Position numbers and translations under genes: made by a program. From Chryseobacterium indoltheticum (GTDB lineage Bacteria; Bacteroidota; Bacteroidia; Flavobacteriales; Weeksellaceae), in the NCBI RefSeq assembly GCF_003815915.1, contig NZ_CP033929.1, forward strand, positions 1,674,001-1,738,000: a stretch of 64,000 nt of DNA, read 5' to 3'. Positions 9,256 through 25,469 of this stretch are shown here, piece after piece. The notes beneath the pieces were generated by a model, which had not been told where the DNA came from, made no database searches, and worked only from the letters and a program-made list of their open reading frames with translations. Within the stretch, counting starts at the first letter, position 1, and each line of letters begins with the position of its first letter.

Positions 9256-10281
9256 ATGAGTAATAAAAAAGTATTATTAACAGGTGTCACAGGATTCTTA
9301 GGTTCTCACACAACTATTCAACTTTTAAATAAAGATTTCGATGTAATTGGAACATTGAGAAGTAGGGATCGAATTAGTTCTATTAGAGAAATAATAGGAA
9401 AGTACTCACCCAACATTAACAATCTAACTTTTGCAGAAGCGGATTTAAGCGATGAAGAAATCTGGCTTGATCTTACAAAAGGTGTAGATTATGTACTGCA
9501 CATTGCTTCACCTTTTCCTCGCGAGCTCCCTAAACACGAAAACGAGCTGATCGAACCAGCTAAAAGGGGGACGTTAAATATTTTGAAAGCCGCTACTGCA
9601 AACAGTGTAAAACGAGTAGTTATGGTTTCTGCTTTGGGCACCATAACCTACGGTAAAACAAAAGAGGAATTGAGTAATGTCTTTGATGAAGATGATTGGA
9701 CAGATGAATCTAATCTTAAAGATACAACAGCTTATTATAGAAGCAAAACTATTGCTGAAAAAGCTGCATGGGATTTTCTTGAAGAAGAAGAATCAAAGTT
9801 GGAATTCACTACTATTTGTCCTGCTGCTATTTTAGGACCCGTAATAGATAATGATTATGGCACATCTGCAAATATTATCATAGGCCTTCTTAATGGAAGC
9901 CTTCCTGCGTTACCTAAAATTGAGTTTGATATTGTAGATGTTCGATCTGTGGCTGATTTATTAATAAAAGCTATGGAAATGCCACAAGCTGTAAATAATA
10001 GATACATTGCATCTGCCGGACATTACAATTATAAAGAAATCGCACAAATCCTGAAACAGCAATATCCTGAAAGAACAATACCCACTTTTTTACTTCCTGA
10101 TTTCATTACAAAAATATTTTCTATTTTTCAACCATTATTGAAACCTGTATTGCTTGAAAATGTAACACGAAAGATTAATTCGGGCAAAGCCGCAAAAGAC
10201 CTAAATTGGCAACCGCTATCAGCGAAAGAAGCCATTCTTTCATGTGCTGAAAGCGTATTGGAAAGTAAAATTGTTATTTAA
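9256..10281 (+). CDS. Extended SDR reductase (dihydroflavonol-4-reductase-like)
   Basis: A 341-residue cytoplasmic NAD(P)-dependent oxidoreductase of the extended short-chain dehydrogenase family. The dinucleotide-binding motif is LLTGVTGFLGSH near residues 7-18; the catalytic pair is in TAYYRSKTIAEKAAW (YxxxK, near residue 161); MVSALGTITYG contains the active-site Ser. The substrate loop ICPAAILGP is typical of the dihydroflavonol/cinnamoyl-CoA/anthocyanidin reductase-like subgroup, so the substrate is probably a small carbonyl compound, unknown here. Length is normal. Its stop codon directly abuts the start of the Crp-type gene, so the two are almost certainly translated from one mRNA. Confidence 0.88.
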   Translation: MSNKKVLLTGVTGFLGSHTTIQLLNKDFDVIGTLRSRDRISSIREIIGKYSPNINNLTFAEADLSDEEIWLDLTKGVDYVLHIASPFPRELPKHENELIEPAKRGTLNILKAATANSVKRVVMVSALGTITYGKTKEELSNVFDEDDWTDESNLKDTTAYYRSKTIAEKAAWDFLEEEESKLEFTTICPAAILGPVIDNDYGTSANIIIGLLNGSLPALPKIEFDIVDVRSVADLLIKAMEMPQAVNNRYIASAGHYNYKEIAQILKQQYPERTIPTFLLPDFITKIFSIFQPLLKPVLLENVTRKINSGKAAKDLNWQPLSAKEAILSCAESVLESKIVI

Positions 10282-11684: not shown

Positions 11685-12521
11685 TTATTTAAAATATATT
11701 CTGGTTGAACTTATATAGTAAGTTTCAGGGATTTTCTTTGGCCATGTTGTAGGTTTAAATTTCTTCTTAAGCCAAAAAAGGTGATACATTACTGCCTCAT
11801 ACTTATTTCTATATATAATCTTTCCTTTTTCAAATTTAAGATGCCCTTCAAATCCTTCCATTAAAATAAAATCAAAATAAGTTCTCACTGTTTTTTCTAA
11901 TTCAGCCTGCTTCATTAGATGTGTGAAACTTTCTATCTCTGTTTCTATATCGAAAATAGAAGAGCCATCCACTAAATAGTCCCAAGCGAAGCTACATTCG
12001 TCAAAACAATAGTGTTTTGATTCAGAAAAAACTTTTTTATAATCTTTACTTTTTTGAAAATAATTATTCATTAAGTCTATATTCCTATAAAGTCCAAAAC
12101 ATCCTGTCGTATAATCATGTCGCACACTTAAGTAATCGTAATTTTCAAGAAGTTCACTGGTGAAAAAAGATCTGATATCACCATAGATAATATCTAAATC
12201 ACAATGTCCCCAGAAATCATAGCCTTTAATTAATTCAGGAAACATAAAACCATAAGCGGGTTTGAAGTCGCAGAGTTTATAAGGATAATCTATATTAATG
12301 TTAAAGTTCAGCTTTTCCGATGTCGAAGAGATTATTTCCGGTAGGCTTTTTAAAATAATCTTCACATTTTCCGGAAGATTGGGAACTTCATCAGTATTGT
12401 CCGTAATTATTATAAAGTCTATGTTTGAATTATAACTGCAAGAATGCAGATAATATGGCAAATACCAAGGATATTCGCCATACCAGCATGTTATGAGTAT
12501 AATTTTATCGAATGCTCTCAT
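11685..12521 (-). CDS. DUF6625-like glycosyltransferase
   Basis: A 278-residue cytoplasmic protein starting MRAFDKIILITCWYGEYPWY. This start, the segment YPYKLCDFKPAYGFMFPELI and the acidic motif DFWGHCDLDIIYGDIRSFF are what I associate with DUF6625, a family of GT-A-like glycosyltransferases; the Asp-Leu-Asp would coordinate the metal and nucleotide sugar. Further conserved-looking residues lie in RHDYTTGCFGLYRN and DECSFAWDY. It is the last gene of the minus-strand peptide locus, 147 bases after the thioredoxin gene. Together with the Cys-rich peptide and two further transferase-like proteins it suggests peptide glycosylation, but an exopolysaccharide role cannot be excluded. Confidence 0.75.
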   Translation of the reverse strand: MRAFDKIILITCWYGEYPWYLPYYLHSCSYNSNIDFIIITDNTDEVPNLPENVKIILKSLPEIISSTSEKLNFNINIDYPYKLCDFKPAYGFMFPELIKGYDFWGHCDLDIIYGDIRSFFTSELLENYDYLSVRHDYTTGCFGLYRNIDLMNNYFQKSKDYKKVFSESKHYCFDECSFAWDYLVDGSSIFDIETEIESFTHLMKQAELEKTVRTYFDFILMEGFEGHLKFEKGKIIYRNKYEAVMYHLFWLKKKFKPTTWPKKIPETYYISSTRIYFK

Positions 12522-12668
12522 ATTCTATTCATTATGCTATGTCATATCGAAGATGATCGATATAAAAGTGTTGATTAAACTATTAAAAACCTGTAACGTG
12601 ATCCTGTTACATGTTGAGAAAAAATCTAAATCTTATTAAATCTATTAGAAATTAATTAAATCCTTCCG

Positions 12669-13739
12669 TTATTTTTGATCCAGTAAGCTTTTTAGCTCAT
12701 CAGGTGAAATATCTTTTGCAATGATTTTGCCGTGTGAATCAAGTAGAAAGTTGGTAGGAAATCTGGTGATGTTAAGATTTATCGCTTCTACACCATTTTC
12801 ATCCAAGACATTTAGCCATTTTAAATCGTAATTTTTAATTACTTTTTTCCAGTTTTGAATGTCCTGACTGCGGTCTGTTGATATACCGATATACTCAAAT
12901 CCGCTTTCATTATATTGGTTGTAAATGCTTTTGTATGCGGGTAAATCTTTCAGACATGGGGCACAATAAGAAAACCAAAAATCTATCAGAGTGTATTTTT
13001 TTCCATATCCTTTTTGAAGTTGTGTTTTGTCAATGGTTAGCGCTGGAAAGTCATTTCCCATTGTAAATTTTTTATCTCTCTTGATAGTAAGAATTAGATC
13101 TTCATAAAGCTTTGATTTTTTGATTTTATCTCCAAAAAATGTCAAATTTTCAGAAAATCCCTCATTAAATCCGATATATCGGTAATCAGAAATAATCATC
13201 CATAAGGCTACATATGAATTTGGATTTTCTTTAATGTATTTTCTTAAGAAATCATTTTTTTTTATGAAATTATCACTGTCAAAAGGCATAAGCTCTATAC
13301 CGTTGTCTTCCAACTGCTTAACAATAAGATTAAATTCTTCTTGTGACTTGCTATGAAGATCTATATGCTTGTATTTGATCAAGTCATTAACAGACATTTT
13401 ATAGTTGGTAGCACTATTATCAACAAAAAATGTTGCGAAATACACTCTATTTTCTTCTTTGTCATAGTAGCTAATCTCAAGAGCGTGTGGGAAATCATCA
13501 ATTATACCGTTAATTAAAAACTTGTTATTTATAACTTTTACTTTGTTATTAAGCAATTTTAGTTTGGCTGATGCGGTATCCTTAACATTTAATTGTATCG
13601 GATAAATGGAAAGTTCTTTATTATTATAAAATTTTGATGTTCCTTCAATTAAAAATTTATTTTGTGATGATAATAAAACAAACGAAAATGTTAAAAGTAT
13701 TGGTAAAAGAACTTTAAGTTTTAAGATAGTAATTTTCAT
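12669..13739 (-). CDS. TlpA-like thiol-disulfide oxidoreductase, exported
   Basis: A 356-residue protein starting MKITILKLKVLLPILL, a signal peptide that sends it to the periplasm. Residues ~20-110 form a beta-rich DUF4369-like domain, a helical linker follows, and residues ~220-356 are a thioredoxin fold with the active site YCAPCLKDLPAYKS and the cis-Pro in ITRFPTNFLLD. Enzymes of this type reduce or form disulfides outside the cytoplasm. It lies just downstream of a small Cys-rich peptide gene (107-base gap), so a role in setting the peptide's disulfides is plausible, as thiol oxidoreductases do in glycocin clusters. A general redox role is the alternative. I chose the inner ATG because it begins a proper signal sequence. 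Confidence 0.85.
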   Translation of the reverse strand: MKITILKLKVLLPILLTFSFVLLSSQNKFLIEGTSKFYNNKELSIYPIQLNVKDTASAKLKLLNNKVKVINNKFLINGIIDDFPHALEISYYDKEENRVYFATFFVDNSATNYKMSVNDLIKYKHIDLHSKSQEEFNLIVKQLEDNGIELMPFDSDNFIKKNDFLRKYIKENPNSYVALWMIISDYRYIGFNEGFSENLTFFGDKIKKSKLYEDLILTIKRDKKFTMGNDFPALTIDKTQLQKGYGKKYTLIDFWFSYCAPCLKDLPAYKSIYNQYNESGFEYIGISTDRSQDIQNWKKVIKNYDLKWLNVLDENGVEAINLNITRFPTNFLLDSHGKIIAKDISPDELKSLLDQK

Positions 13740-13846
13740 TATTTTTCCAATTTTAATTAAAAAAATAAATGTTATCAATCTATAGAATTTATATTATATA
13801 TAGACCAATAACATTTTAATTTATTTTTTAAATAATAAAATTAATC

Positions 13847-14026
13847 TTAGCAACAAGCAAAACCGTTACCAGGACCATTTACAAATCTGTGTTTTCCTGA
13901 CGGGCAAGCTGGATTTGTAAGGATGCATAGTGTACCACCACTACCTGCCATAATACCTTTCAATTCTTTCCTAGATAATTCGTTTTTTGCTACAGCAAAG
14001 CTCATTTTCTTTAGCTTTTTTTCCAT
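13847..14026 (-). CDS. Cys-rich peptide precursor with glycine-type leader (bacteriocin-like)
   Basis: A 59-residue peptide. The leader MEKKLKKMSFAVAKNELSRK, then ELKGIMAGSGG, matches the double-glycine leaders of Bacteroidetes natural-product precursors (the Leu-Ser-Arg-x-Glu-Leu-Lys box before Gly-Ser-Gly-Gly), which are cut by C39 peptidase transporters. The predicted 28-residue core after Gly31 carries four Cys at 34, 41, 58 and 59 plus several Gly, Pro, Ser and Thr residues. I start at the ATG giving MEKK rather than 17 codons upstream, because the leader box then sits at the usual place. It is flanked on the same strand by glycosyltransferase-like genes and a thioredoxin. No peptidase-ABC transporter is in the window. 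A modified, secreted peptide is the likely product. Confidence 0.8.
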   Translation of the reverse strand: MEKKLKKMSFAVAKNELSRKELKGIMAGSGGTLCILTNPACPSGKHRFVNGPGNGFACC

Positions 14027-14469
14027 AATAAATTTTGTTTGTTTAGTTATACCATTATTGGTTTTTAAATATGACAATAATGAGTGAATTAAAAAAGAAT
14101 TTTAACAATTATTAACATTTTAAATTTTAAAAGCAATAAAATATGGTCATGCTGGAGCTACAACAGTTAATTTTAACAACTCGTAATTATCCATCATAAA
14201 AGGTTTTAAAAAAATTAACTATAGTTTATGATTTGTTAACTTTTTTTATGAACTTTTATCAAGTGATAAAATGTTTAAAGTGTCCGAACAATTCGCTAAA
14301 CAAAAGCGAATTTATTCTATTAGCCAGTTCTACACAGATATTAGTGATTTAAATTTTCATTGATAATCCCCAGTATCGAAATTATATCATATTTTAAGCA
14401 AACCTCGGTCGAAAATGTTAACTCTATTTTAAACTTGCAAAATGAGGCGATATTTGTAGGTACAAATAT
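14027..14469. other. Upstream region of the peptide gene
   Basis: A 443-base AT-rich gap between the peptide start and the end of the GT25-like gene. It should contain the peptide promoter and upstream elements; I found no exact TAnnTTTG box and no gene. Its length suggests the peptide gene has its own promoter. Confidence 0.4.
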
Positions 14470-15141
14470 TTAGATGTTACTTTCTTTAATGAGCTCAAGA
14501 TATTTACGATGGTAAAATGATAATTCTTTATTTGCATTTTTAAAACATGTTTCAATGTCATCCTCATTATTATTCAGATTTTGGATATCAGAATATCCAA
14601 AACCTTTTTGAACAGATATAAATGGATACATCACCATTTTATTTAATGTAAGTTCTGAAAAAACATTATCTGCCCCATCTTCATCACCAAATTTCACATT
14701 TAAAATTTGTTCATAAAATTTTTGATAAATGACTACAAATTGAGTACACCAAAAATGATTAATCCAGAATCTGTTTTCGGTAATTGGAACCACATAGTTA
14801 AAACCACCTCCGATTCCACCTAATAAAAGATCTGCACCATTAGCATGGGCACCTATTATATTTGAAATGAAATATTCTTTAGAGTAAGTGTCTGTAAAAA
14901 CATGATCATCTTCTATTAATAAGATAACATCATCTTCATTAGTTTGCGCTAACTTGATAATCTTTACAATACTTTCCCACAGACCTACATTTCCATTTTG
15001 ATGTTCACAAGCTTCAATAATATGAATATCAAATTCATCTTTTCCATCAAATTCTTTTAAAACGCTTGTCAAACGATCTTCTCTTTTTTTAAGATTAATA
15101 ATGTAAGTGGGTATAATAATATCTTCAAACTGTTCATTCAT
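14470..15141 (-). CDS. GT25-like glycosyltransferase
   Basis: A 223-residue cytoplasmic protein. The start TYIINLKKREDRLTSVLKEF is the classic opening of glycosyltransferase family 25 (LPS galactosyltransferase-type), and LIEDDHVF carries the acidic Asp-Asp-His metal/donor motif. A second conserved block ADLLLGGIGGGFNY and MVMYPFISVQKGFGYSD recur in the neighbouring paralogue. Its ATG overlaps the stop of the upstream paralogue by four bases, so the two are co-translated. Linked to the Cys-rich peptide gene on the same strand. Peptide glycosylation is my inference; the acceptor cannot be told from sequence. Confidence 0.78.
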   Translation of the reverse strand: MNEQFEDIIIPTYIINLKKREDRLTSVLKEFDGKDEFDIHIIEACEHQNGNVGLWESIVKIIKLAQTNEDDVILLIEDDHVFTDTYSKEYFISNIIGAHANGADLLLGGIGGGFNYVVPITENRFWINHFWCTQFVVIYQKFYEQILNVKFGDEDGADNVFSELTLNKMVMYPFISVQKGFGYSDIQNLNNNEDDIETCFKNANKELSFYHRKYLELIKESNI

Positions 15142-15635
15142 GATCGATAAAATTTACGAATGTGTTTAAGGTCTTCAATAATAATATTAGATCGCTCATA
15201 ATGATCGACCCCAGAGGAGCTTGGTTCTAAAGTAATAAAAGGGTGCATAACAAAAATGTTTTCTGCAATTTCAGATATAAAATCCTCAAGATTAACATTG
15301 TTGAGATGTTTATTCTTAATGATTTTATAGAATATCTTGTTAAACAAAACTATGAAATTGAATCCATGAAACTTTTCAATACAAAATAGATTTTCATCAA
15401 TCTGTAATATCTTATGAAAATTTTGTACTCCTCCTAAAAGTATATCTGCACTTTTTTCTTGAGCTTTACTGATACAGGTATTTATATATTTATTCAGTGA
15501 GATATTATTATTTTTTTTTGATGTGTTGCATATAATGACAAAAGCACTATCTATATTTTTAATTAATATATCAGCAATCTTTTGTAAATGATCCTTGGTT
15601 TCACAGAAATAAATAATATTATCCATACTTTCCAC
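15138..15635 (-). CDS. Degenerate paralogue of the GT25-like protein
   Basis: A 165-residue protein related to the gene that follows it: ADILLGGVQNFHKILQIDEN aligns with ADLLLGGIGGGFNYVVPITE, FIVLFNKIFYKII with FVVIYQKFYEQIL, and FVMHPFITLE with MVMYPFISVQ. It lacks the INLKKREDR opening and the EDDHVF acidic motif, so it probably is not a catalyst by itself; it may form a heterodimer with the active paralogue. The start could be the first or fourth codon (MESMDN). It overlaps the next gene by four bases. Intact frame. Confidence 0.7.
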   Translation of the reverse strand: MESMDNIIYFCETKDHLQKIADILIKNIDSAFVIICNTSKKNNNISLNKYINTCISKAQEKSADILLGGVQNFHKILQIDENLFCIEKFHGFNFIVLFNKIFYKIIKNKHLNNVNLEDFISEIAENIFVMHPFITLEPSSSGVDHYERSNIIIEDLKHIRKFYRS

Positions 15636-15670
15636 AAATTAATGTCTTTATTAAAAATAAATATATAGTA

Positions 15671-15723
15671 AATATAGCAATTAAAAAAAATTAGCTATTC
15701 TTATTTTTTTTAATTGCTATATT
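15671..15723 (-). terminator. Perfect 20-base-pair AT-rich hairpin upstream of the GT pair
   Basis: Bases 15671-15690 and 15704-15723 are exact inverted repeats (AATATAGCAATTAAAAAAAA and its complement) around a 13-base loop. The loop holds the stop codon of the 31-residue frame at 15691-15786. It lies between that frame and the GT gene that starts at 15635, so it may attenuate read-through or protect an mRNA end. The A and T runs inside the stem make it act as a terminator in either direction. Confidence 0.6.
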
Positions 15724-15786
15724 TTTTATTTCTTCATACTTATCGTTTGTTGAAACAGTGAATCCAATTAGGGGTAAATTTTCCAT
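15691..15786 (-). CDS. Possible 31-residue small protein
   Basis: An ATG-started frame MENLPLIGFTVSTNDKYEEI, then KNIAIKKNKNS, whose stop lies in the loop of a perfect hairpin. The sequence is protein-like (alternating hydrophobic start, charged helix) and could be a short peptide of the locus or the start of a decayed longer gene. It has no glycine leader and no cysteine. Too short to be sure. Confidence 0.35.
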   Translation of the reverse strand: MENLPLIGFTVSTNDKYEEIKNIAIKKNKNS

Positions 15787-16401
15787 GTTCAAAATTTAAC
15801 ATTTTTAATATCCGCAATTATTCTGATCCATATGGCCCAAATGTTTTTTTGATAAGCGAGTAACCTTTGAACCTTAGTCAATAGATCACTAATAGCTAAA
15901 AAAGGAAAAAACAAATATCTGAAATGAAGATCTTCCGCTTTATACAGATTTACATCCAATCTAATTTCAGTTTTTTTCTATCATATTAAAATAAAGAGAT
16001 TTCGTTAGGCTAATAACTGTGCACAAAGTTAAAGCAATGGCATTAATGCCAAATGATTAATCAGTATACAAATATGGCTCTCCGAAACAATGAACTTTGA
16101 ATGAGAGTCCGTGTACGAATTTCTTTCCTTCATCAAACTTATTGCTGATTTTTAAAGTTCCCTATTGTATTTGAAATTATTTTTTATGAAGAACCTTCAC
16201 TTAAAAATAATTTAATTTTCAGAATAGGATTTTAGTAATGCCCGTTTTCAAATAAATATCTTCTGCAATAACCATATGAAATAAGTGGATTCTCTAAAGT
16301 AATAAATTTATATATATGTTCATTATTGAGTAGTAGTGGTTTTTTGAGATTGATTAGAAGTTATATTGCAAGTTTAGTTGGTAAAATATTAAATTCCAAT
16401 G
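15787..16401. other. Non-coding stretch
   Basis: About 615 AT-rich bases between the small frame and the 90-residue gene. I see no gene, RNA gene or repeat here. Confidence 0.4.
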
Positions 16402-18503: not shown

Positions 18504-21500
18504 ATGATGAAGAAACAAATTTTATTATTTTATATATTATTATGTGGGATTATATATGGACAATCAGCAAATAACTATGCTCCAATAACATATCCAACAT
18601 CACCTGATGTAACTAAAATGCAAACTTATGGGCAGGTTCCTGTAACACCTTATTCTGGCCTGGCAAATGTTTCCATTCCAATATACACTATTAAAGAAGG
18701 TGATTTTGAATTTCCCATTTCTTTAGACTACAATTCCAGAGGTATAAAAGTACAGGAGGAAGCATCGAGAGTGGGCTTAGGATGGTCATTAGGATTCCCT
18801 GGATTAATTAGCAGGTCAATTAACGGTCAAGATGATTTTATAGGTGGATACGGACAACTAAATGGTAAATACTTTAATTCTAAGGCAAATGATGGAGCAA
18901 GTTATGTTCCGGACTTAATTGGATATTATGCAATTCCTACTGATTATTTAAAATTAGGATTAGACACCAGATTGTGGCCAACTGATTATAAACTTGAAAA
19001 TTACATTCAAGCAGACAGAATAAAAGATAATACTGATTTTCAGCCAGATGACTATTTTTATAATTTGCCTAATTATTCAGGTCGTTTTATTTTTAAACGA
19101 AATAAAACAGCTGTACTAGAAAAGATTCAAGATAATTTAAAAATTGAGATTCTTGATTCTTTAAATAATGTAGGCCAGCCCACAATGAAGAAAATGAAGG
19201 TGACTGATAAGCAAGGAAATATATATACATTCAACGATTTTGAATCTTTAACATTTCAAGGCTCAAATATAACAAAAACTGACAATGCATGGTATGTTTC
19301 TAAAATTAAAACAAAAGAAGGTAAAGAAATAAAATTCACTTATGAAACTCTTCAATCATCACCGAGTTATAATTTGTATGACTATGCAGGGATGCCAATT
19401 GATTTTTATGATGGTAACTACGTCAATACTACATTTCCATTTGGCGAACTAAAAGTGTATGAAGGCTTAAAATGGTTTACCTGTAAACTAATTAAGAAAA
19501 TAGTTTTCCCATCAGGATATATCATCTTTACTTATGATACAAGAACCGATATTTATAATGACAAAAAAATAGTAGAAATTAGTATTTATGATTTGAACAA
19601 CAAATTAATCAATAAGATAAAACTAAATCAGGATTATTTTAATACAAATTTTACCTCGATACTTACAGATTTAGGTGAATGGCAACAAAATCAGGTTGGG
19701 TTTTCAAATAGACAAGATTATTTAAATAAGAGATTAAAATTTACATCAATTGACTTTTTGGATAAAGATAATCATATTATAAATACACAGCAGTTTCAAT
19801 ACAATGATGAGTATATACCTGCAAAGAACTCCACGGCAATAGATTATTGGGGTTACTTTAACGGTGTTGCAACTAATCAAAATCTTTTTCCTGCCTTTTC
19901 TATAACAGTACCGGAAGCTGAAGGTAGTGCAATTGGATATGCTTTCCCTCAAAACAATATTTTCCGAACGGGATCAGAAATTCTGTTATCAATACCAGGA
20001 GCAAATAGAGATGTTAATCCGCTTTATACTAATGCATTAACATTGAAAAAGATAGTTTATCCTACAAAAGGATCCACTACTTTACAATATGAAAATAATA
20101 CCTATAATCCAAAAAAATCTTTTGTCAATGATTATAATGCAAGTAAATATTCGATTTATCAAAACAATAATATAAATGGTAATCTATATAATTACATAGG
20201 AGGTCTAAGGATAAAGACAATTTTAACAGATGACAGTAATGGAGGGATTTACAAAAAGGATTTTAATTATCATTATTTAGAAGATACTAATAATGATGGT
20301 ATTGCTGAGAATCACTCGTCTGGGTATTTATTAAAAAGACCTAGTTTATTCGATTTCAGAAAGAAAAGGTCTTTGGAATATTTTCAAGCGGGAAATGGCC
20401 CCAGCAATCCTGATCTAAATGGAATGAATGGATATGCACTAATTAGAAATATGGCATTATATGAAAATGATTATATCGGATATGAAAATGTTGAGGAAGT
20501 GGATGAAAATCTGATAACCTCAGAAAAGATAAAAAAAACGTATAGTTATTATATATCTCCAACTCTTGTATATAACGTTTATGCATTGGGCAAGGGCATT
20601 AAGCCACCTAAGCCAAATTTTCAGGAACCGATGAATTTCCCAATGTTAAGTGCTTTTAGTAATATGAATTCATTTAGCATTAAACCACACAAGACAATTA
20701 ATAATAGGGCATACTTCAGAGACTATACTTTTGACTATAAACCCTTTGAAGTTAAGGATGAAGTAGGTGTTAAAAATGGTTTACTAAAAGCGATTTTATA
20801 CTATTCATACAATAACACTTTTTCCCTTGTATCAGAAGAAAATTATGATTATCAAATTGCTCAAAAAGATTTAATGTGGGGTTGTATATATGATCATACA
20901 ATGACTGAAGGATATATTGGACAGATGAATAATACTAGTTCATTGAACCCCGTAAGTAATTATTATTTCCAATATTTTAATCCGCTTCCTTTTATAAACC
21001 CTTACACCAATGGAGTTCAGAATACAGCAGGTTATCCCTTTTCAATTTATAACTTAATTTACAGAACAATTTATCCTACTTATAACCCAGGAGCTTCGGT
21101 AATTATAAAAAAACAATATTTAAATGGCCAAGTTTTATCTTCAAAAACAGAAAATGAATATGTTTCTGCTTTTGATAATAATATTGGCAGAGGAAATTTA
21201 TTAACCTCAAAAGTTTCGTATCCTGATGCCTCTATAACTGAAACGAGATATAAATATTCGTTTGAAAAAAATAACATACCATTAATTAATGCTAATATTG
21301 TTGGTATTCCACTGGAAACAGTGGTGGTTAAGAAGAGGAACGATTTAGATGCGGGAAAAATACTCTCTCAAACAGAAACGAAATATGATAATCCTTCAAA
21401 CTTATTTCCAACCTCAATATTATCCTCAGATCTTCAAAATCCTACAGTTTCTTCTACGGAAGCTACTTATGATCAATACGACTCTAAAGGCAATATTTTG

Positions 21501-21887
21501 CAGTACACGACAAAAGATGGTGTTGTAACATCTATTATCTGGGGTTACAATTCTACCCAGCCTATCGCAAAAGTAACAGGTGTATCATATTCTGTAGCAA
21601 GCGCATTGGCAACAGATATTATTTCGGCTTCAAATGGTGACATTGATACAGGTACTGAGCAGACTTTAATAGGAAAATTAGATACTTTCAGAAAACTTCC
21701 TGCATTGCAAAATGCACAAATATCTACCTATACCTATGATCCACTGATTGGAGTGACGAGCATTACTCCTCCTTCTGGAATTAGAGAAGTTTACTTGTAC
21801 GACTTAGCCAACAGACTCAATGAAATCAGGGAATATAATGTCACAGGTAAAATCATAAAAGAATTCAAGTACAACTACAAACCATAA
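18504..21887 (+). CDS. Large secreted RHS partner protein (SpvB/YD-like shell)
   Basis: A 1127-residue protein with a signal peptide (KKQILLFYILLCGIIYGQS). The opening YAPITYPTSPDVTKMQTYGQ, then VPVTPYSGLANVSIPIYTI, DFEFPISLDYNSRGIKVQEE and RVGLGWSLGFPG, is the beta-shell entry motif shared by SpvB/TcB-type and Bacteroidetes RHS-pair proteins (VxLGWxL). The C-terminal ~250 residues contain YD-like pieces (YRYKYSFEKNN-type and EATYDQYDSKGNILQYTT). Such proteins always precede the RHS core gene in flavobacteria; the two probably form one hollow shell enclosing the toxin tip. The gene is followed by a nine-base gap and the RHS core gene. Role inferred from family knowledge. Confidence 0.8.
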   Translation: MMKKQILLFYILLCGIIYGQSANNYAPITYPTSPDVTKMQTYGQVPVTPYSGLANVSIPIYTIKEGDFEFPISLDYNSRGIKVQEEASRVGLGWSLGFPGLISRSINGQDDFIGGYGQLNGKYFNSKANDGASYVPDLIGYYAIPTDYLKLGLDTRLWPTDYKLENYIQADRIKDNTDFQPDDYFYNLPNYSGRFIFKRNKTAVLEKIQDNLKIEILDSLNNVGQPTMKKMKVTDKQGNIYTFNDFESLTFQGSNITKTDNAWYVSKIKTKEGKEIKFTYETLQSSPSYNLYDYAGMPIDFYDGNYVNTTFPFGELKVYEGLKWFTCKLIKKIVFPSGYIIFTYDTRTDIYNDKKIVEISIYDLNNKLINKIKLNQDYFNTNFTSILTDLGEWQQNQVGFSNRQDYLNKRLKFTSIDFLDKDNHIINTQQFQYNDEYIPAKNSTAIDYWGYFNGVATNQNLFPAFSITVPEAEGSAIGYAFPQNNIFRTGSEILLSIPGANRDVNPLYTNALTLKKIVYPTKGSTTLQYENNTYNPKKSFVNDYNASKYSIYQNNNINGNLYNYIGGLRIKTILTDDSNGGIYKKDFNYHYLEDTNNDGIAENHSSGYLLKRPSLFDFRKKRSLEYFQAGNGPSNPDLNGMNGYALIRNMALYENDYIGYENVEEVDENLITSEKIKKTYSYYISPTLVYNVYALGKGIKPPKPNFQEPMNFPMLSAFSNMNSFSIKPHKTINNRAYFRDYTFDYKPFEVKDEVGVKNGLLKAILYYSYNNTFSLVSEENYDYQIAQKDLMWGCIYDHTMTEGYIGQMNNTSSLNPVSNYYFQYFNPLPFINPYTNGVQNTAGYPFSIYNLIYRTIYPTYNPGASVIIKKQYLNGQVLSSKTENEYVSAFDNNIGRGNLLTSKVSYPDASITETRYKYSFEKNNIPLINANIVGIPLETVVVKKRNDLDAGKILSQTETKYDNPSNLFPTSILSSDLQNPTVSSTEATYDQYDSKGNILQYTTKDGVVTSIIWGYNSTQPIAKVTGVSYSVASALATDIISASNGDIDTGTEQTLIGKLDTFRKLPALQNAQISTYTYDPLIGVTSITPPSGIREVYLYDLANRLNEIREYNVTGKIIKEFKYNYKP

Positions 21888-21896
21888 AACATAAAT

Positions 21897-24800
21897 ATGA
21901 AAAAAATACTTATCCCCATAGGAACTTTACTGTTGTCAGGTTTAGTTTACGGACAATTGAGTCCTACAGAAAATTATGTTTACACAAAAACATATCTGGA
22001 TTATAATGGGACTACAGCTTCTAAGACTTCGGAAACGGTTCAGTATTTCGATGGTTTAGGCAGACCTAAACAGATTGTTAATATCAAAGCATCCCCACTT
22101 GGAAAAGATGTGGTTACTCCGATTATTTATGATGGATTTGGAAGACAAACAAGAGATTATCTGCCTGTTCCTCAGCTATCGACAAGCAACGGGGCAATAT
22201 ATACTCAAGCTTCAGTATTGGTAGATTTTCCCGTAGGAGATCCTGCAAATACTTATACCAATGAGAAGGCATTTGCCGAAAAGCAATTGGAAAACTCTCC
22301 TTTAGACAGAATTCATCAACAGATTCAGGTGGGAAATGACTGGGCAAGTAAACCTGTAAAGTTTAATTATGAGGCGAATGAGGTAAATGATCGTGTCGGG
22401 AATTTTGGTACAACGACAACCTGGGTGGAGAATGCTACAAAAACGATAGTAAAAACAGGAAATAATCTCTTTTATGCAACTGCACAACTTTATAAAAGCA
22501 CAGTCACAGATGAAGATGGTAATAAAACCATAGAATTTAAAAACGGACAGGGACAAATAATATTGGTTAGAAAAGTATTGAGTGCAACCGAGAATGCGGA
22601 TACTTATTACATTTATAACGAATACAATCAGTTAGCCATAGTCGTACCACCTAAAGCCGCTTTTTCATTTTTTGAGGAATATGGCGCTGGGAGTGATGAT
22701 GAAATACCAAATGATATTTTAAACAACCTCTGCTATCAGTACAAATATGATGGCAGAAACCGTTTAGTAGAAAAAAAACTTCCGGGGAAAGGCTGGGAAT
22801 ATATGGTGTATGATAAAGCAGACCATCTTGTGGCCACACAAGATGCCAATTTAAGGCAAACCTCAACATGGCTCGTTACCAAATATGACAGATTCGGACG
22901 AGTGATCTATACAGGATTAATGCCTCTTTCCAATGAAACCAGGGGAAGTTTGCAAGGAATGACCAACCCTCATGTAATTGTTGAATCTAGCAACAATACT
23001 GGATTTACGAAAAATGGAATGCAAATCTATTATACAAATAATTTGTACAGTCAGATAGAAACCGTATTATCTGTCAATTATTATGATACCTATCCTGCAG
23101 GAACTCCTGCAATACCAACTCAAATTTTAGGACAGAGTATTCTTTCACAAGATGCCCAGAACTCCAATATGAGTACAAAAAGTTTACCTACAGCTTCTTA
23201 TATGAAAAATATTGAAGATGATAACTGGACAAAAAACTATACGTGGTACGACCAAAAAGAAAGATCAATCGGAAGTCATTCTATCAATCACTTAGGGGGC
23301 TATACCAAAACAGAATCTCTTCTTGATTTTTCAGGAACTCCAAAGATGACTATTACCAAACATAAAAGACTTGATAGTGATACCGAAAGAGTGATTACTG
23401 AAAACTTTACTTATGATCACCAAAACAGATTATTAACCCATACCCATCAGGTTGATAACAATGCTGTGGAATATCTTGCTCAAAATAAGTATAATGAATT
23501 ATCTCAGTTAGAGTATAAAAAAGTTGGTGGAATGAATTTGGGTCAAGGTTTACAACAAGTAGATTACAAATACAACATCCGAGGCTGGATGACGCAGGTT
23601 AATAATCCTACAAATTTAGGAAGTGATTTGTTTGGTTATAAAATCAAATATAATCAGGTAGAAGGTGAACAGACTCCTAATAATGATTTCTTAGCACTTC
23701 AGGTAAAACCAAAATTCAACGGTAACATTGCAGAAGTAGACTGGAAAACCTCCACTCAGGAAAACGAGCCTCTTAAAAGATATGGCTATGTATATGATGG
23801 ATTAAACAGGTTATTAGCAGGTTTTTATCAAAACGAAATCAATCCTACAGCTAAAGAATATTTTGAAAAAATAGATTACGACTTAAGCGGAAACATTATG
23901 AGACTCCAACGTTCCGCAGAGCTCATGACAGGAAATACTGCAGCGTTTAAGATTGATAATCTTAAATATGATTATTTAGGAAATAGGCTTACAAAAGTTA
24001 CTGAAGAACAGATTGGAGGCAATAATGGCTATCCTTATCTGGCAAGTCACAATACGATTGAGTATGACAATAATCTGGCTAACGGAAATGGTAACATGAC
24101 CAAACATTTAGATAAAGGTATTTCATCAATTCAGTATAATTTTCTAAATTTACCAAAGCAGATTACTCAGAATGCACAGGTAACCAATTATGTTTATCGG
24201 GCAGACGGAGTAAAAGTAAAGAAGCTCTTTGGAGATATAGAAACCAATTATCTGGATGGTTTTCAGTATAAAAGTACAATGCCATCAGAGAGTGGAAATG
24301 GTGGAGGTGGTATTGGGGTTATAGATCCGAATGAGGTTGCTGTTATGAAGCTGAGAATTATTCCGACTTCGGAGGGATATTTTGATGCTTTGAGCAATCA
24401 GTATATTTATAATTATACCGATCATCTAGGAAACGTAAGACTAAGTTATAGTGATACGAACAAGGATGGTATTGTTCAACCAAGGAGATATTTTTGGCAA
24501 CAATGTGATGGACCATGGGATCCTTTTAATCCACCTAATTGTATTGATGGTTGGAGACCTGGCGAGATTGTAGAAGTAAACAATTATTATCCTTTTGGAT
24601 TGATGCATAATTATACGGCTACCACGCAGAATGCTTATCAGTATAAGTATAATGGAAAGGAACTGCAAGAGACAGGAATGTACGACTATGGTGCAAGATT
24701 CTATATGCCGGATATTGGAAGATGGGGTGTAATAGATCCGTTGGCGGAAAAATACCAACCTTTTAATGCCTATAATTATGTTTTGAATAATCCAATTAGT

Positions 24801-25469
24801 AATATTGATCCCGATGGGATGGATGTTATCGAAAATTCAACAAGCGTTACATATACCGGATCTGATGCACAATCAGCTTTTAAAAATCTTATTGCTAATA
24901 CGTCGTCAGATAGTGGAGATGATAAAAAAAATCCACGAAAAGCAGGATCTATTCCTAAAGGTATGACAGAAGCTGAATCATTAATAGAAGTGGTTAAAAT
25001 TGATGGAAAGAAATACCATAAAAATACAACTAATCAGTTCGCCGTACTTTTAAATAAAATAAATAGCAGCCTTAACGGCGATGATGATTATTTCGTAGAA
25101 CATAAAGAATATGATCCTGTGTTAGCTAAACAACTTCAAACAGGAGCGAATGTAGGTTCATATTTCATAGGAGGAAGCGTAGCAAAAACAGGAATAAGAG
25201 TAGTATCTGAGAAAATTTTTGTAAATAATTTAAAAAAATTAGGATTTAAGGAATTACAGGTTGTAGTTAAAGGTTATCATCCTGAAATGAATACTTTTTT
25301 CCGATCGGGTGGAAAAGAAGCCGTTAGTAGTAAAGCTTTACAAGCCTATAAAGAATTAGCGACAAGAATAGTTAATGGAACTGGAGGTGCTCCAGCCAGT
25401 AAAGCCACTGAAACTGCTCTGAGAGTACAAATTCAAAGAATTGAAATGATTAATAAAGCTTTAAAATAA
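21897..25469 (+). CDS. RHS repeat protein with variable C-terminal toxin tip
   Basis: A 1190-residue exported protein. After a signal peptide (MKKILIPIGTLLLSGLVYGQ) comes a DUF6443-like start (YVYTKTYLDYNGTTASKTSE, VQYFDGLGRPKQIV), many YD repeats (YVYDGLNRLLAGFYQ), and the RHS core near residues 840-978 ([42 protein letters not shown], then DPLAEKYQPFNAYNYVLNNP and NIDPDGMD). The last ~210 residues are the tip: a Ser/Asp-rich linker, a Gly-rich hydrophobic stretch (NVGSYFIGGSVAKTGIR) and a C-terminal module (ELQVVVKGYHPEMNTFFRSG, then SSKALQAYKELATRIVNGTG and ATETALRVQIQRIEMINKAL). I do not recognise this tip. An SUKH immunity gene follows after three bases, which marks the tip as a toxin. 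Confidence 0.9.
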   Translation: MKKILIPIGTLLLSGLVYGQLSPTENYVYTKTYLDYNGTTASKTSETVQYFDGLGRPKQIVNIKASPLGKDVVTPIIYDGFGRQTRDYLPVPQLSTSNGAIYTQASVLVDFPVGDPANTYTNEKAFAEKQLENSPLDRIHQQIQVGNDWASKPVKFNYEANEVNDRVGNFGTTTTWVENATKTIVKTGNNLFYATAQLYKSTVTDEDGNKTIEFKNGQGQIILVRKVLSATENADTYYIYNEYNQLAIVVPPKAAFSFFEEYGAGSDDEIPNDILNNLCYQYKYDGRNRLVEKKLPGKGWEYMVYDKADHLVATQDANLRQTSTWLVTKYDRFGRVIYTGLMPLSNETRGSLQGMTNPHVIVESSNNTGFTKNGMQIYYTNNLYSQIETVLSVNYYDTYPAGTPAIPTQILGQSILSQDAQNSNMSTKSLPTASYMKNIEDDNWTKNYTWYDQKERSIGSHSINHLGGYTKTESLLDFSGTPKMTITKHKRLDSDTERVITENFTYDHQNRLLTHTHQVDNNAVEYLAQNKYNELSQLEYKKVGGMNLGQGLQQVDYKYNIRGWMTQVNNPTNLGSDLFGYKIKYNQVEGEQTPNNDFLALQVKPKFNGNIAEVDWKTSTQENEPLKRYGYVYDGLNRLLAGFYQNEINPTAKEYFEKIDYDLSGNIMRLQRSAELMTGNTAAFKIDNLKYDYLGNRLTKVTEEQIGGNNGYPYLASHNTIEYDNNLANGNGNMTKHLDKGISSIQYNFLNLPKQITQNAQVTNYVYRADGVKVKKLFGDIETNYLDGFQYKSTMPSESGNGGGGIGVIDPNEVAVMKLRIIPTSEGYFDALSNQYIYNYTDHLGNVRLSYSDTNKDGIVQPRRYFWQQCDGPWDPFNPPNCIDGWRPGEIVEVNNYYPFGLMHNYTATTQNAYQYKYNGKELQETGMYDYGARFYMPDIGRWGVIDPLAEKYQPFNAYNYVLNNPISNIDPDGMDVIENSTSVTYTGSDAQSAFKNLIANTSSDSGDDKKNPRKAGSIPKGMTEAESLIEVVKIDGKKYHKNTTNQFAVLLNKINSSLNGDDDYFVEHKEYDPVLAKQLQTGANVGSYFIGGSVAKTGIRVVSEKIFVNNLKKLGFKELQVVVKGYHPEMNTFFRSGGKEAVSSKALQAYKELATRIVNGTGGAPASKATETALRVQIQRIEMINKALK

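What the first reader, a model, noticed from the sequence alone, without database searches (positions are those of the whole stretch)
11685..15786. Glycocin-like peptide locus: leader peptide, thioredoxin and three glycosyltransferase-like proteins
On one strand lie a 59-residue precursor with a glycine-type leader and four core Cys, a periplasmic CxxC thioredoxin-like protein with CAPC, a DUF6625-like transferase and a GT25-like pair. Known glycocins (for example sublancin) combine exactly a Cys-rich leader peptide, a thiol oxidoreductase and a glycosyltransferase. I know of no described glycocin of this enzyme set in flavobacteria. The peptidase transporter would have to be elsewhere.
Basis: inference. 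Interest (0 to 1): 0.85.

Follow-up and report, generated by a model that had tools for sequence, protein, structure and literature searches.

The report
Sugar-decorated secreted peptide gene cluster
A bacterium of the flavobacterium group carries a small gene cluster that probably makes a secreted, disulfide-bonded peptide decorated with sugars, using candidate sugar-attaching enzymes not known to do this job, and the same set recurs in related bacteria.

Summary
In detail: on the minus strand lie a 59-residue precursor with a double-glycine-type leader and four core Cys, a TlpA-like thioredoxin, a DUF6625 protein and an overlapping GT25-like pair. The set recurs. Of 148 sampled genomes of the genus, 9 have the precursor; all 9 have DUF6625 within a few kb and 8 the GT25 pair. 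Of 25 DUF6625 genes in that sample, 23 lie at peptide loci and 2 beside an NRPS. Outside the genus it is 6 of 12 genomes, with 3 in polysaccharide-type clusters. The 'missing' C39 transporter and a VKOR-DsbA protein lie elsewhere in the same genome. The second 'GT25' lacks the EDDH motif. Listed relatives of the precursor mostly have six Cys. Best reading: a RiPP locus making a disulfide-rich, probably O-glycosylated, exported peptide. It may work like a glycocin but fails two glycocin traits (transferase family, Cys number), so I do not file it as one.

The parts
13847..14026 (-). precursor peptide gene, 59 aa (P0001)
   Evidence: matches in 9 of 148 genus genomes, own included; 713 database proteins at E<=0.01 with alignment A7
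13943..14026 (-). leader, 28 aa ending E(-8)LKGI(-4)MAG, double-glycine (AG) type
   Evidence: AG at the site in 119 and Ser at +1 in 118 of the 120 listed proteins (chosen by leader similarity); cleavage site inferred from the C39 leader rule (recalled)
13850..13942 (-). core, 31 aa, four Cys, C-terminal CC
   Evidence: of 120 listed proteins 117 have an even number of core Cys (one of these has none), 100 have six, 10 have four
12669..13736 (-). TlpA/ResA-like thioredoxin with signal-peptide-like N-terminus, CAPC motif
   Evidence: PF13905 1.2e-14, PF08534, PF00578; thioredoxins of this kind lie near leader peptides in L052, L075 and L007
11685..12521 (-). DUF6625 protein, candidate glycosyltransferase (invariant D-x-D at residues 108 and 110)
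   Evidence: PF20330 1.2e-58; D108 and D110 invariant in 48 of 48 aligned members
14470..15141 (-). GT25-like protein, EDDH motif intact, candidate glycosyltransferase
   Evidence: 51 of 51 aligned members match PF01755 at E<=1, best 1.6e-7; EDDH invariant; below the family cut-off itself
15138..15626 (-). degenerate GT25 paralogue (pseudo-transferase partner), overlapping the GT25 start by ATGA
   Evidence: lacks the N-terminal motif and EDDH; a second, weaker match adjoins the strong one in 9 of 9 GT25-positive genus genomes
13738..13849 (-). hairpin region between precursor and thioredoxin gene, possible attenuator/terminator
   Evidence: RNA fold -21.0 kcal/mol, z -3.95, 0 of 200 shuffles as stable

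Best explanation
A RiPP locus for a secreted, disulfide-bonded, glycosylated peptide. The precursor (leader ending AG, core of 31 aa) is made in the cytoplasm. There the GT25-like enzyme, working with its pseudo-transferase partner encoded in the overlapping gene (proposed to hold the leader or acceptor), and the DUF6625 enzyme add one or more sugars to the core, more likely on hydroxyl residues than on Cys. A C39 peptidase-ABC transporter encoded elsewhere in the genome (G000:C1:2144336-2146531, with an HlyD-type partner) cuts after AG and exports the peptide. In the periplasm the VKOR-DsbA fusion beside that transporter and the TlpA-like thioredoxin of this locus form and shuffle two disulfides. 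The product is probably a bacteriocin. Shown: gene content, recurrence, pairing, presence of transporter and oxidase in the genome. Inferred: transferase activity, peptide as acceptor, residue, sugar, export in trans, antibacterial role.
For: Gene set. Precursor in 9 of 148 genus genomes, all with DUF6625 close by, 8 with the GT25 pair; the remaining GT25-positive genome (G033) holds a related precursor between GT25 and DUF6625. At least four different surroundings (window, L002 type, L050, L052); L052 has precursor, TlpA, VKOR, DUF6625 and the GT25 pair together. DUF6625 in 25 places in the sampled genus: 11 with Cys-rich leader peptides, 9 in class I lanthipeptide-type clusters, 3 at other C39, LanC-like or leader-peptide loci, 2 beside an NRPS. 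L075 has two six-Cys precursors, TlpA, VKOR, DUF6625 and C39, plus an HlyD-type gene by eye. GT25 homologues sit with a leader peptide and C39 in Chitinophaga L007, and with a leader peptide, LanB and C39 in Dyadobacter L010. GT25-GT25 tandem fusions in L007 and L009 suggest that paired domains work together. In the genus, 13 of 16 places matching an AGSG-leader DNA pattern lie beside DUF6625, the other 3 fall in or opposite larger ORFs; reversed pattern 0. C39 and VKOR in the same genome.
Against: No experiment and no structure. DUF6625 has no sequence match to a solved glycosyltransferase and GT25 only very weak ones (E 0.2-0.3); the window GT25 is below the PF01755 cut-off. Of 12 DUF6625-bearing genomes outside the genus 6 have it at peptide loci, 3 in polysaccharide-type clusters, 3 in unclear settings. 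DUF6625 accompanies unrelated products (six-Cys peptides, lanthipeptides, NRPS), which also fits a role not on the peptide. G138 has precursor + DUF6625 but no GT25. In the phylum sample a GT25 relative in G500 (L082) shows no leader peptide or C39 nearby, and two weak ones (G283, G487) were not examined; L009 shows no C39. In the tandem fusions both halves keep EDDH, so they do not themselves show a pseudo-subunit. C39 is in 145 of 148 genus genomes, so its presence is weak evidence. AGSG-leader peptides occur in genomes without DUF6625.
Confidence: 0.6

Rival explanations
1. The peptide is an unglycosylated disulfide-rich bacteriocin; DUF6625 and the GT25 pair decorate a cell-surface glycan or lipid, for example to make the producer immune.
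For: DUF6625 sits in polysaccharide-type clusters in 3 of 12 non-genus genomes (L070, L076, L081, by eye). It accompanies unrelated product types including NRPS, as an immunity factor might. Pfam describes GT25 as an LPS biosynthesis family. Sugar-type genes exist a few kb away: an epimerase-family protein at window 9256-10281 and, by eye, a mannose-1-phosphate guanylyltransferase-like ORF at L002 15026-16108.
Against: No run of surface-glycan genes was seen in the window locus or beside the genus peptide loci (ORF lists, read by eye); in the genus sample the GT25 pair occurs only at precursor loci (9 of 9); GT25 sits in C39 or lanthipeptide-type clusters in Chitinophaga and Dyadobacter.
Confidence: 0.2
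2. A true S-linked glycocin with a new transferase: one or two core Cys carry sugars and the rest form disulfides.
For: Thioredoxin-like gene and Cys-rich core as in glycocins; orniglycocin has eight Cys with GlcNAc on two Cys (PMC12457901, abstract and passages seen), so an even Cys number does not exclude it.
Against: Core Cys even in 117 of 120 listed relatives and six in 100 of 120, most simply all in disulfides; no GT2 match.
Confidence: 0.1
3. A radical-SAM-modified RiPP, as public names for some relatives say (TIGR04149).
For: One of the relative precursors scanned passes TIGR04149 (26.1 bits against 25); source names.
Against: The window precursor has no TIGR04149 match at E<=1; none of the 12 window proteins scanned between 5832 and 25466 has a radical SAM domain.
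Confidence: 0.02

Closest known systems
Glycocins (sublancin, glycocin F, thermoglycocin, orniglycocin)
   Same: Cys-rich core behind a leader, thioredoxin-like protein(s), transferase gene, C39 peptidase transporter
   Different: Transferase candidates are DUF6625 and a GT25 pair rather than SunS-type (recalled); four core Cys (relatives mostly six) rather than five, seven or eight; C39 in trans; Gram-negative Bacteroidota
Chryseobacterium 'bacteriocin-like' leader peptides (NF047798)
   Same: Double-glycine-type leaders and Cys-rich cores; ten leader peptides stand at the transporter locus of this genome (L069), and the one tested matches the model
   Different: Here the leader ends AG followed by Ser, the window precursor does not match the model, and candidate transferases are present
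TIGR04149 leader peptides (Bacteroidetes, radical SAM associated)
   Same: Leader resemblance; one relative passes the model
   Different: No radical SAM domain in the window proteins scanned
Bacteroidales RiPP clusters with glycosyltransferases (BGC3 and BGC9 of PMC10352776; passages and section 3.2 seen)
   Same: Leader peptides and glycosyltransferases in Bacteroidota clusters
   Different: Built round radical SAM/LanC-like or LanM; the text seen names neither DUF6625 nor GT25
Class I lanthipeptide-type clusters carrying DUF6625 (L056-L063, L065)
   Same: DUF6625 as an apparent tailoring gene
   Different: LanB/LanC chemistry, longer DUF6625 form, no GT25 in those genomes

Membership tests
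Glycocin | S- or O-linked sugar on the core peptide | not testable with these tools
   needs mass spectrometry
Glycocin | SunS-like (GT2) peptide glycosyltransferase (feature recalled) | tested here: not met
   the five locus proteins match DUF6625, thioredoxin families, PF01755 weakly, or nothing; no GT2 match at E<=1
Glycocin | five core Cys (seven or eight in thermoglycocin/orniglycocin; PMC12457901 passages) | tested here: not met
   four in the window core; of 120 listed relatives 100 have six, 10 four, 5 eight, 2 seven, 1 five, 1 ten, 1 none
Glycocin | thioredoxin-like protein in the locus | tested here: met
   12669-13736, PF13905/PF08534
Glycocin | C39 peptidase-ABC transporter | tested here: inconclusive
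   none in the locus; one in the genome 456 kb away; in the cluster in L075 and L007; but C39 is in 145 of 148 genus genomes
Double-glycine leader peptide | E(-8), hydrophobic (-7, -4), G/A/S(-2) G/A/S(-1) before the core (rule recalled) | tested here: met
   ELKGIMAG by inspection; AG in 119 of 120 listed relatives
TIGR04149 radical SAM RiPP | leader passes the model and a radical SAM gene is near | tested here: not met
   no match of P0001; no radical SAM domain in the 12 scanned window proteins
GT25 (PF01755) | profile match over cut-off and conserved acidic motif, for 14470-15141 | tested here: inconclusive
   17.6 bits against 24; all 51 aligned members match at E<=1, best 1.6e-7; EDDH invariant
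GT25 (PF01755) | same, for the partner 15138-15626 | tested here: not met
   no match at E<=1; motif absent, though homologous to GT25
DUF6625 (PF20330) | profile match over cut-off | tested here: met
   199.5 bits against 27

The most novel reading that the evidence does not exclude
A widespread, unrecognised class of glycosylated, mostly three-disulfide RiPPs in Bacteroidota (leader ending AG|S), made by a split GT25 enzyme (active subunit + pseudo-transferase that presents the peptide) together with DUF6625. DUF6625 itself would be a general natural-product glycosyltransferase family, also decorating class I lanthipeptides and NRPS products, recruited from polysaccharide synthesis.
Probability: 0.4. 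Interest if true: 0.78.

Novelty: new variant of a known kind. Interest (0 to 1): 0.62.

Why it matters
Experimentally identified glycocins are few (ten, in Bacillota, by PMC9576775, passage seen) and rest on one type of transferase as far as I recall. A glycosylated-peptide class in Bacteroidota with two other transferase families and a pseudo-enzyme partner would widen the tools for peptide glycosylation. It would give a function to DUF6625, a Pfam family of unknown function whose name occurs in no paper of the held library, and the loci are small enough to be tested by co-expression.

Tried and rejected
Sequence searches of solved structures gave no transferase for DUF6625 and only weak hits for GT25, to collagen galactosyltransferases and R655 among others. 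hhalign of A3/A4 against single transferase sequences and controls did not separate the two. Pfam scans of 48 DUF6625 members gave no link to a known transferase family. The flavobacterial promoter consensus (recalled) has no match just upstream of any locus gene; one match lies about 430 bp upstream of the GT pair, at 16052. An empty-site test failed: the flanking gene has only partial matches in 3 of 24 other relatives. No GT25 match in plasmids. Considered and rejected: radical SAM RiPP; chance ORF; Ser(+1) as the sugar site (also there in AGSG peptides of genomes without DUF6625: L085, L086, L087, L089, though the search pattern favoured Ser there); Cys parity as proof against S-linkage (orniglycocin is a counter-example). 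Leader pattern in the phylum sample: 22 places in 19 of 395 genomes, reversed-pattern control 3; 7 places beside DUF6625; 6 fetched without DUF6625 (4 with a leader-like ORF, 1 inside a larger ORF, 1 with none seen); 9 not examined. The pattern also misses some real precursors (G004).
Full report
What is there. The minus strand of 11685-15626 encodes, in order of transcription, a partner protein (15138-15626), a GT25-like protein (14470-15141, overlapping the partner by ATGA), the precursor (13847-14026), a TlpA-like thioredoxin (12669-13736) and a DUF6625 protein (11685-12521). Pfam: DUF6625 1.2e-58; thioredoxin families 1e-14 to 1e-11; GT25 only E 0.0037, below the cut-off; nothing for partner and precursor. 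No meaningful NCBIfam match for precursor, DUF6625, GT25 or partner. Seven flanking proteins scanned are a P-type ATPase, a FixH protein, an epimerase-family protein, a cNMP-binding protein, a protein with a T9SS sorting domain, one without match and one with DUF6443; no radical SAM domain. The locus is 28.0% G+C against 33-35% around it, which fits acquisition from outside but proves nothing. The genus is taken as Chryseobacterium because the closest named DUF6625 protein (97%) and the closest GT25 loci are from it.

The precursor. The leader ends ELKGIMAG, a double-glycine leader with AG at the cleavage site, followed by a 31-residue core with four Cys. An alignment of 11 precursors (A7) finds 713 proteins at E<=0.01 among 2375 candidates. 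Of the 120 listed, 119 have AG at the site, 118 have Ser at +1, 117 have an even number of core Cys (one has none), 100 have six and 10 have four. These 120 were ranked by similarity to the profile, so the leader figures are partly built in; the Cys figures are less so. I first read Cys parity as excluding S-glycosylation; orniglycocin (eight Cys, two sugar-bearing; PMC12457901) shows that it only makes it less likely.

Recurrence. In 148 sampled genomes of the genus the precursor matches 9, DUF6625 24 (25 places), GT25 9, each with one strong and one weak match. All 9 precursor genomes carry DUF6625 within a few kb; 8 carry GT25. G138 has precursor and DUF6625 only. G033 has GT25 and DUF6625, and a related precursor lies between them (L050). 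Several genomes share one syntenic locus (L002-L006 type), so these are not nine independent events; at least four different surroundings are seen. P under independence 1.8e-8; crude P for four loci 7e-4. A DNA pattern for the AGSG leader matched 16 places in 12 of 148 genomes: 13 beside DUF6625, 3 in or opposite larger ORFs; reversed pattern 0. In the phylum sample it matched 22 places, reversed pattern 3; 7 places are beside DUF6625, 6 fetched ones are not, 9 were not examined. Among database lists, 13 longest-contig lengths of 3 kb or more are shared between the 120 precursors and the 120 DUF6625 proteins listed, and 5 between precursors and GT25; equal length suggests, but does not prove, the same contig.

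What DUF6625 keeps company with. In the genus sample all 25 places were looked at: 11 with Cys-rich leader peptides; 9 in class I lanthipeptide-type clusters (LanB, LanC and luciferase-like confirmed by Pfam in one, L056; the others by matching ORF lengths and starts); 2 beside a C39-type transporter (by eye); 1 with a short leader peptide and a LanC-like protein (L067); 2 beside an NRPS (Pfam in L054 only). In a phylum sample of 395 genomes 15 have it, 12 of them outside the genus. Of these 12, 6 are at peptide loci: L071, L073, L074, L075 and L077 (C39, LanC-like or LanB by Pfam) and L080 (by eye). Three are in polysaccharide-type clusters by eye (L070, L076, L081) and 3 are unclear (L072, L078, L079). 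L075 is the clearest: two six-Cys precursors, TlpA, VKOR, DUF6625 and C39, with an HlyD-type gene by eye; its contig length equals that given for Flavobacterium endoglycinae proteins. DUF6625 has D108 and D110 invariant in 48 of 48 aligned members. Its presence in polysaccharide-type clusters supports its being a transferase and at the same time warns that its acceptor need not be the peptide.

The GT25 pair. The GT25-like protein keeps the N-terminal motif and EDDH (EDDH invariant in 51 of 51), and all 51 match PF01755 at E<=1. The partner is homologous (24% identity; E 4e-18 against L007) but lacks both motifs. In Chitinophaga L007 and the MAG locus L009 two GT25 domains are fused in tandem, both with EDDH; in Dyadobacter L010 a degenerate GT25 is fused to a domain that looks like GT2 by eye. 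I read the partner as a non-catalytic subunit, by inference. Context of the nine GT25 loci: five Chryseobacterium with precursors; L007 (leader peptide, TlpA, Branch, GT25-GT25, GT92 and C39, the domains by Pfam apart from GT25-GT25; HlyD and VKOR types by eye); L010 (leader peptide; LanB and C39 by Pfam); L008 (C39 and HlyD types by eye); L009 no C39 seen. Against: of 395 phylum genomes 5 match GT25 (two in the genus); G500, fetched as L082, shows no leader peptide or C39, and the weak matches G283 and G487 were not examined.

Export and oxidation. The genome has one C39 match, in a transporter gene at C1:2144336-2146531, with a VKOR-DsbA-type fusion, an HlyD-type protein (by eye) and ten leader peptides around it. 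C39 is in 145 of 148 genus genomes and VKOR in 12 of 12 tested, so export in trans is plausible but not special. The window thioredoxin resembles those near precursors in L052 and L075.

Literature. Ten searches of the held open-access library, some with capped lists (15 of 85 papers; 12 of 10,587). DUF6625 is named in 0 papers. No title listed was about a GT25 or DUF6625 peptide locus in Chryseobacterium or Flavobacterium. Nearest: PMC10352776 (Bacteroidales RiPP mining; passages and section 3.2 seen), which reports glycosyltransferases in two clusters and S-glycosyltransferase-domain hits; PMC12457901 (passages); PMC9576775 (passages). A paper on glycocin clusters beyond Firmicutes (Singh and Rao 2021) was seen only as a reference; it could hold related clusters.

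Verdict. A real and recurring RiPP-type locus (about 0.9). That the transferases act on the peptide: 0.6 to 0.7. Filing it as a glycocin is not warranted, since transferase family and Cys number do not fit; it may well work like one.

Noticed in passing
L069 (G000:C1:2136000-2155000): C39 transporter locus of the same genome with ten leader peptides, mostly Cys-rich, a VKOR-DsbA-type fusion and an HlyD-type protein; the one peptide tested matches NF047798.
   Followed up: partly
L056-L063, L065: Class I lanthipeptide-type clusters in nine genus genomes with luciferase-like protein, LanC, LanB, a longer DUF6625 and a 122-124 aa protein (no Pfam match for the one tested).
   Followed up: partly
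L054, L055: DUF6625 followed by a small protein beside an NRPS.
   Followed up: no
L007 7320-8681; L009 7344-9191: Tandem GT25-GT25 fusions, both halves with EDDH.
   Followed up: partly
window 15655-15735: Very strong A+T-rich hairpin upstream of the GT25 pair (z -6.69), perhaps a terminator or a mobile-element trace.
   Followed up: partly
L073 11013-11662: Two AG-leader peptides with hydrophobic, glycine-rich, two-Cys cores beside DUF6625 and C39, resembling two-peptide bacteriocins by eye.
   Followed up: no
L071 897-1748, 3335-4690: Very long (283 and 451 aa) leader-bearing proteins with three DUF6625 matches and C39.
   Followed up: no
L085-L089: AGSG-leader peptides among many lipoprotein-like genes (by eye), with C39-type genes by eye in L085 and L086, in genomes without DUF6625.
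   Followed up: no
L074 6434-8662: C39 domain and ABC transporter appear as two separate ORFs (153 and 575 aa); not examined further.
   Followed up: no
window 18504-25469: Two very large proteins downstream; the second has DUF6443 and looks RHS/YD-repeat-like by eye.
   Followed up: no
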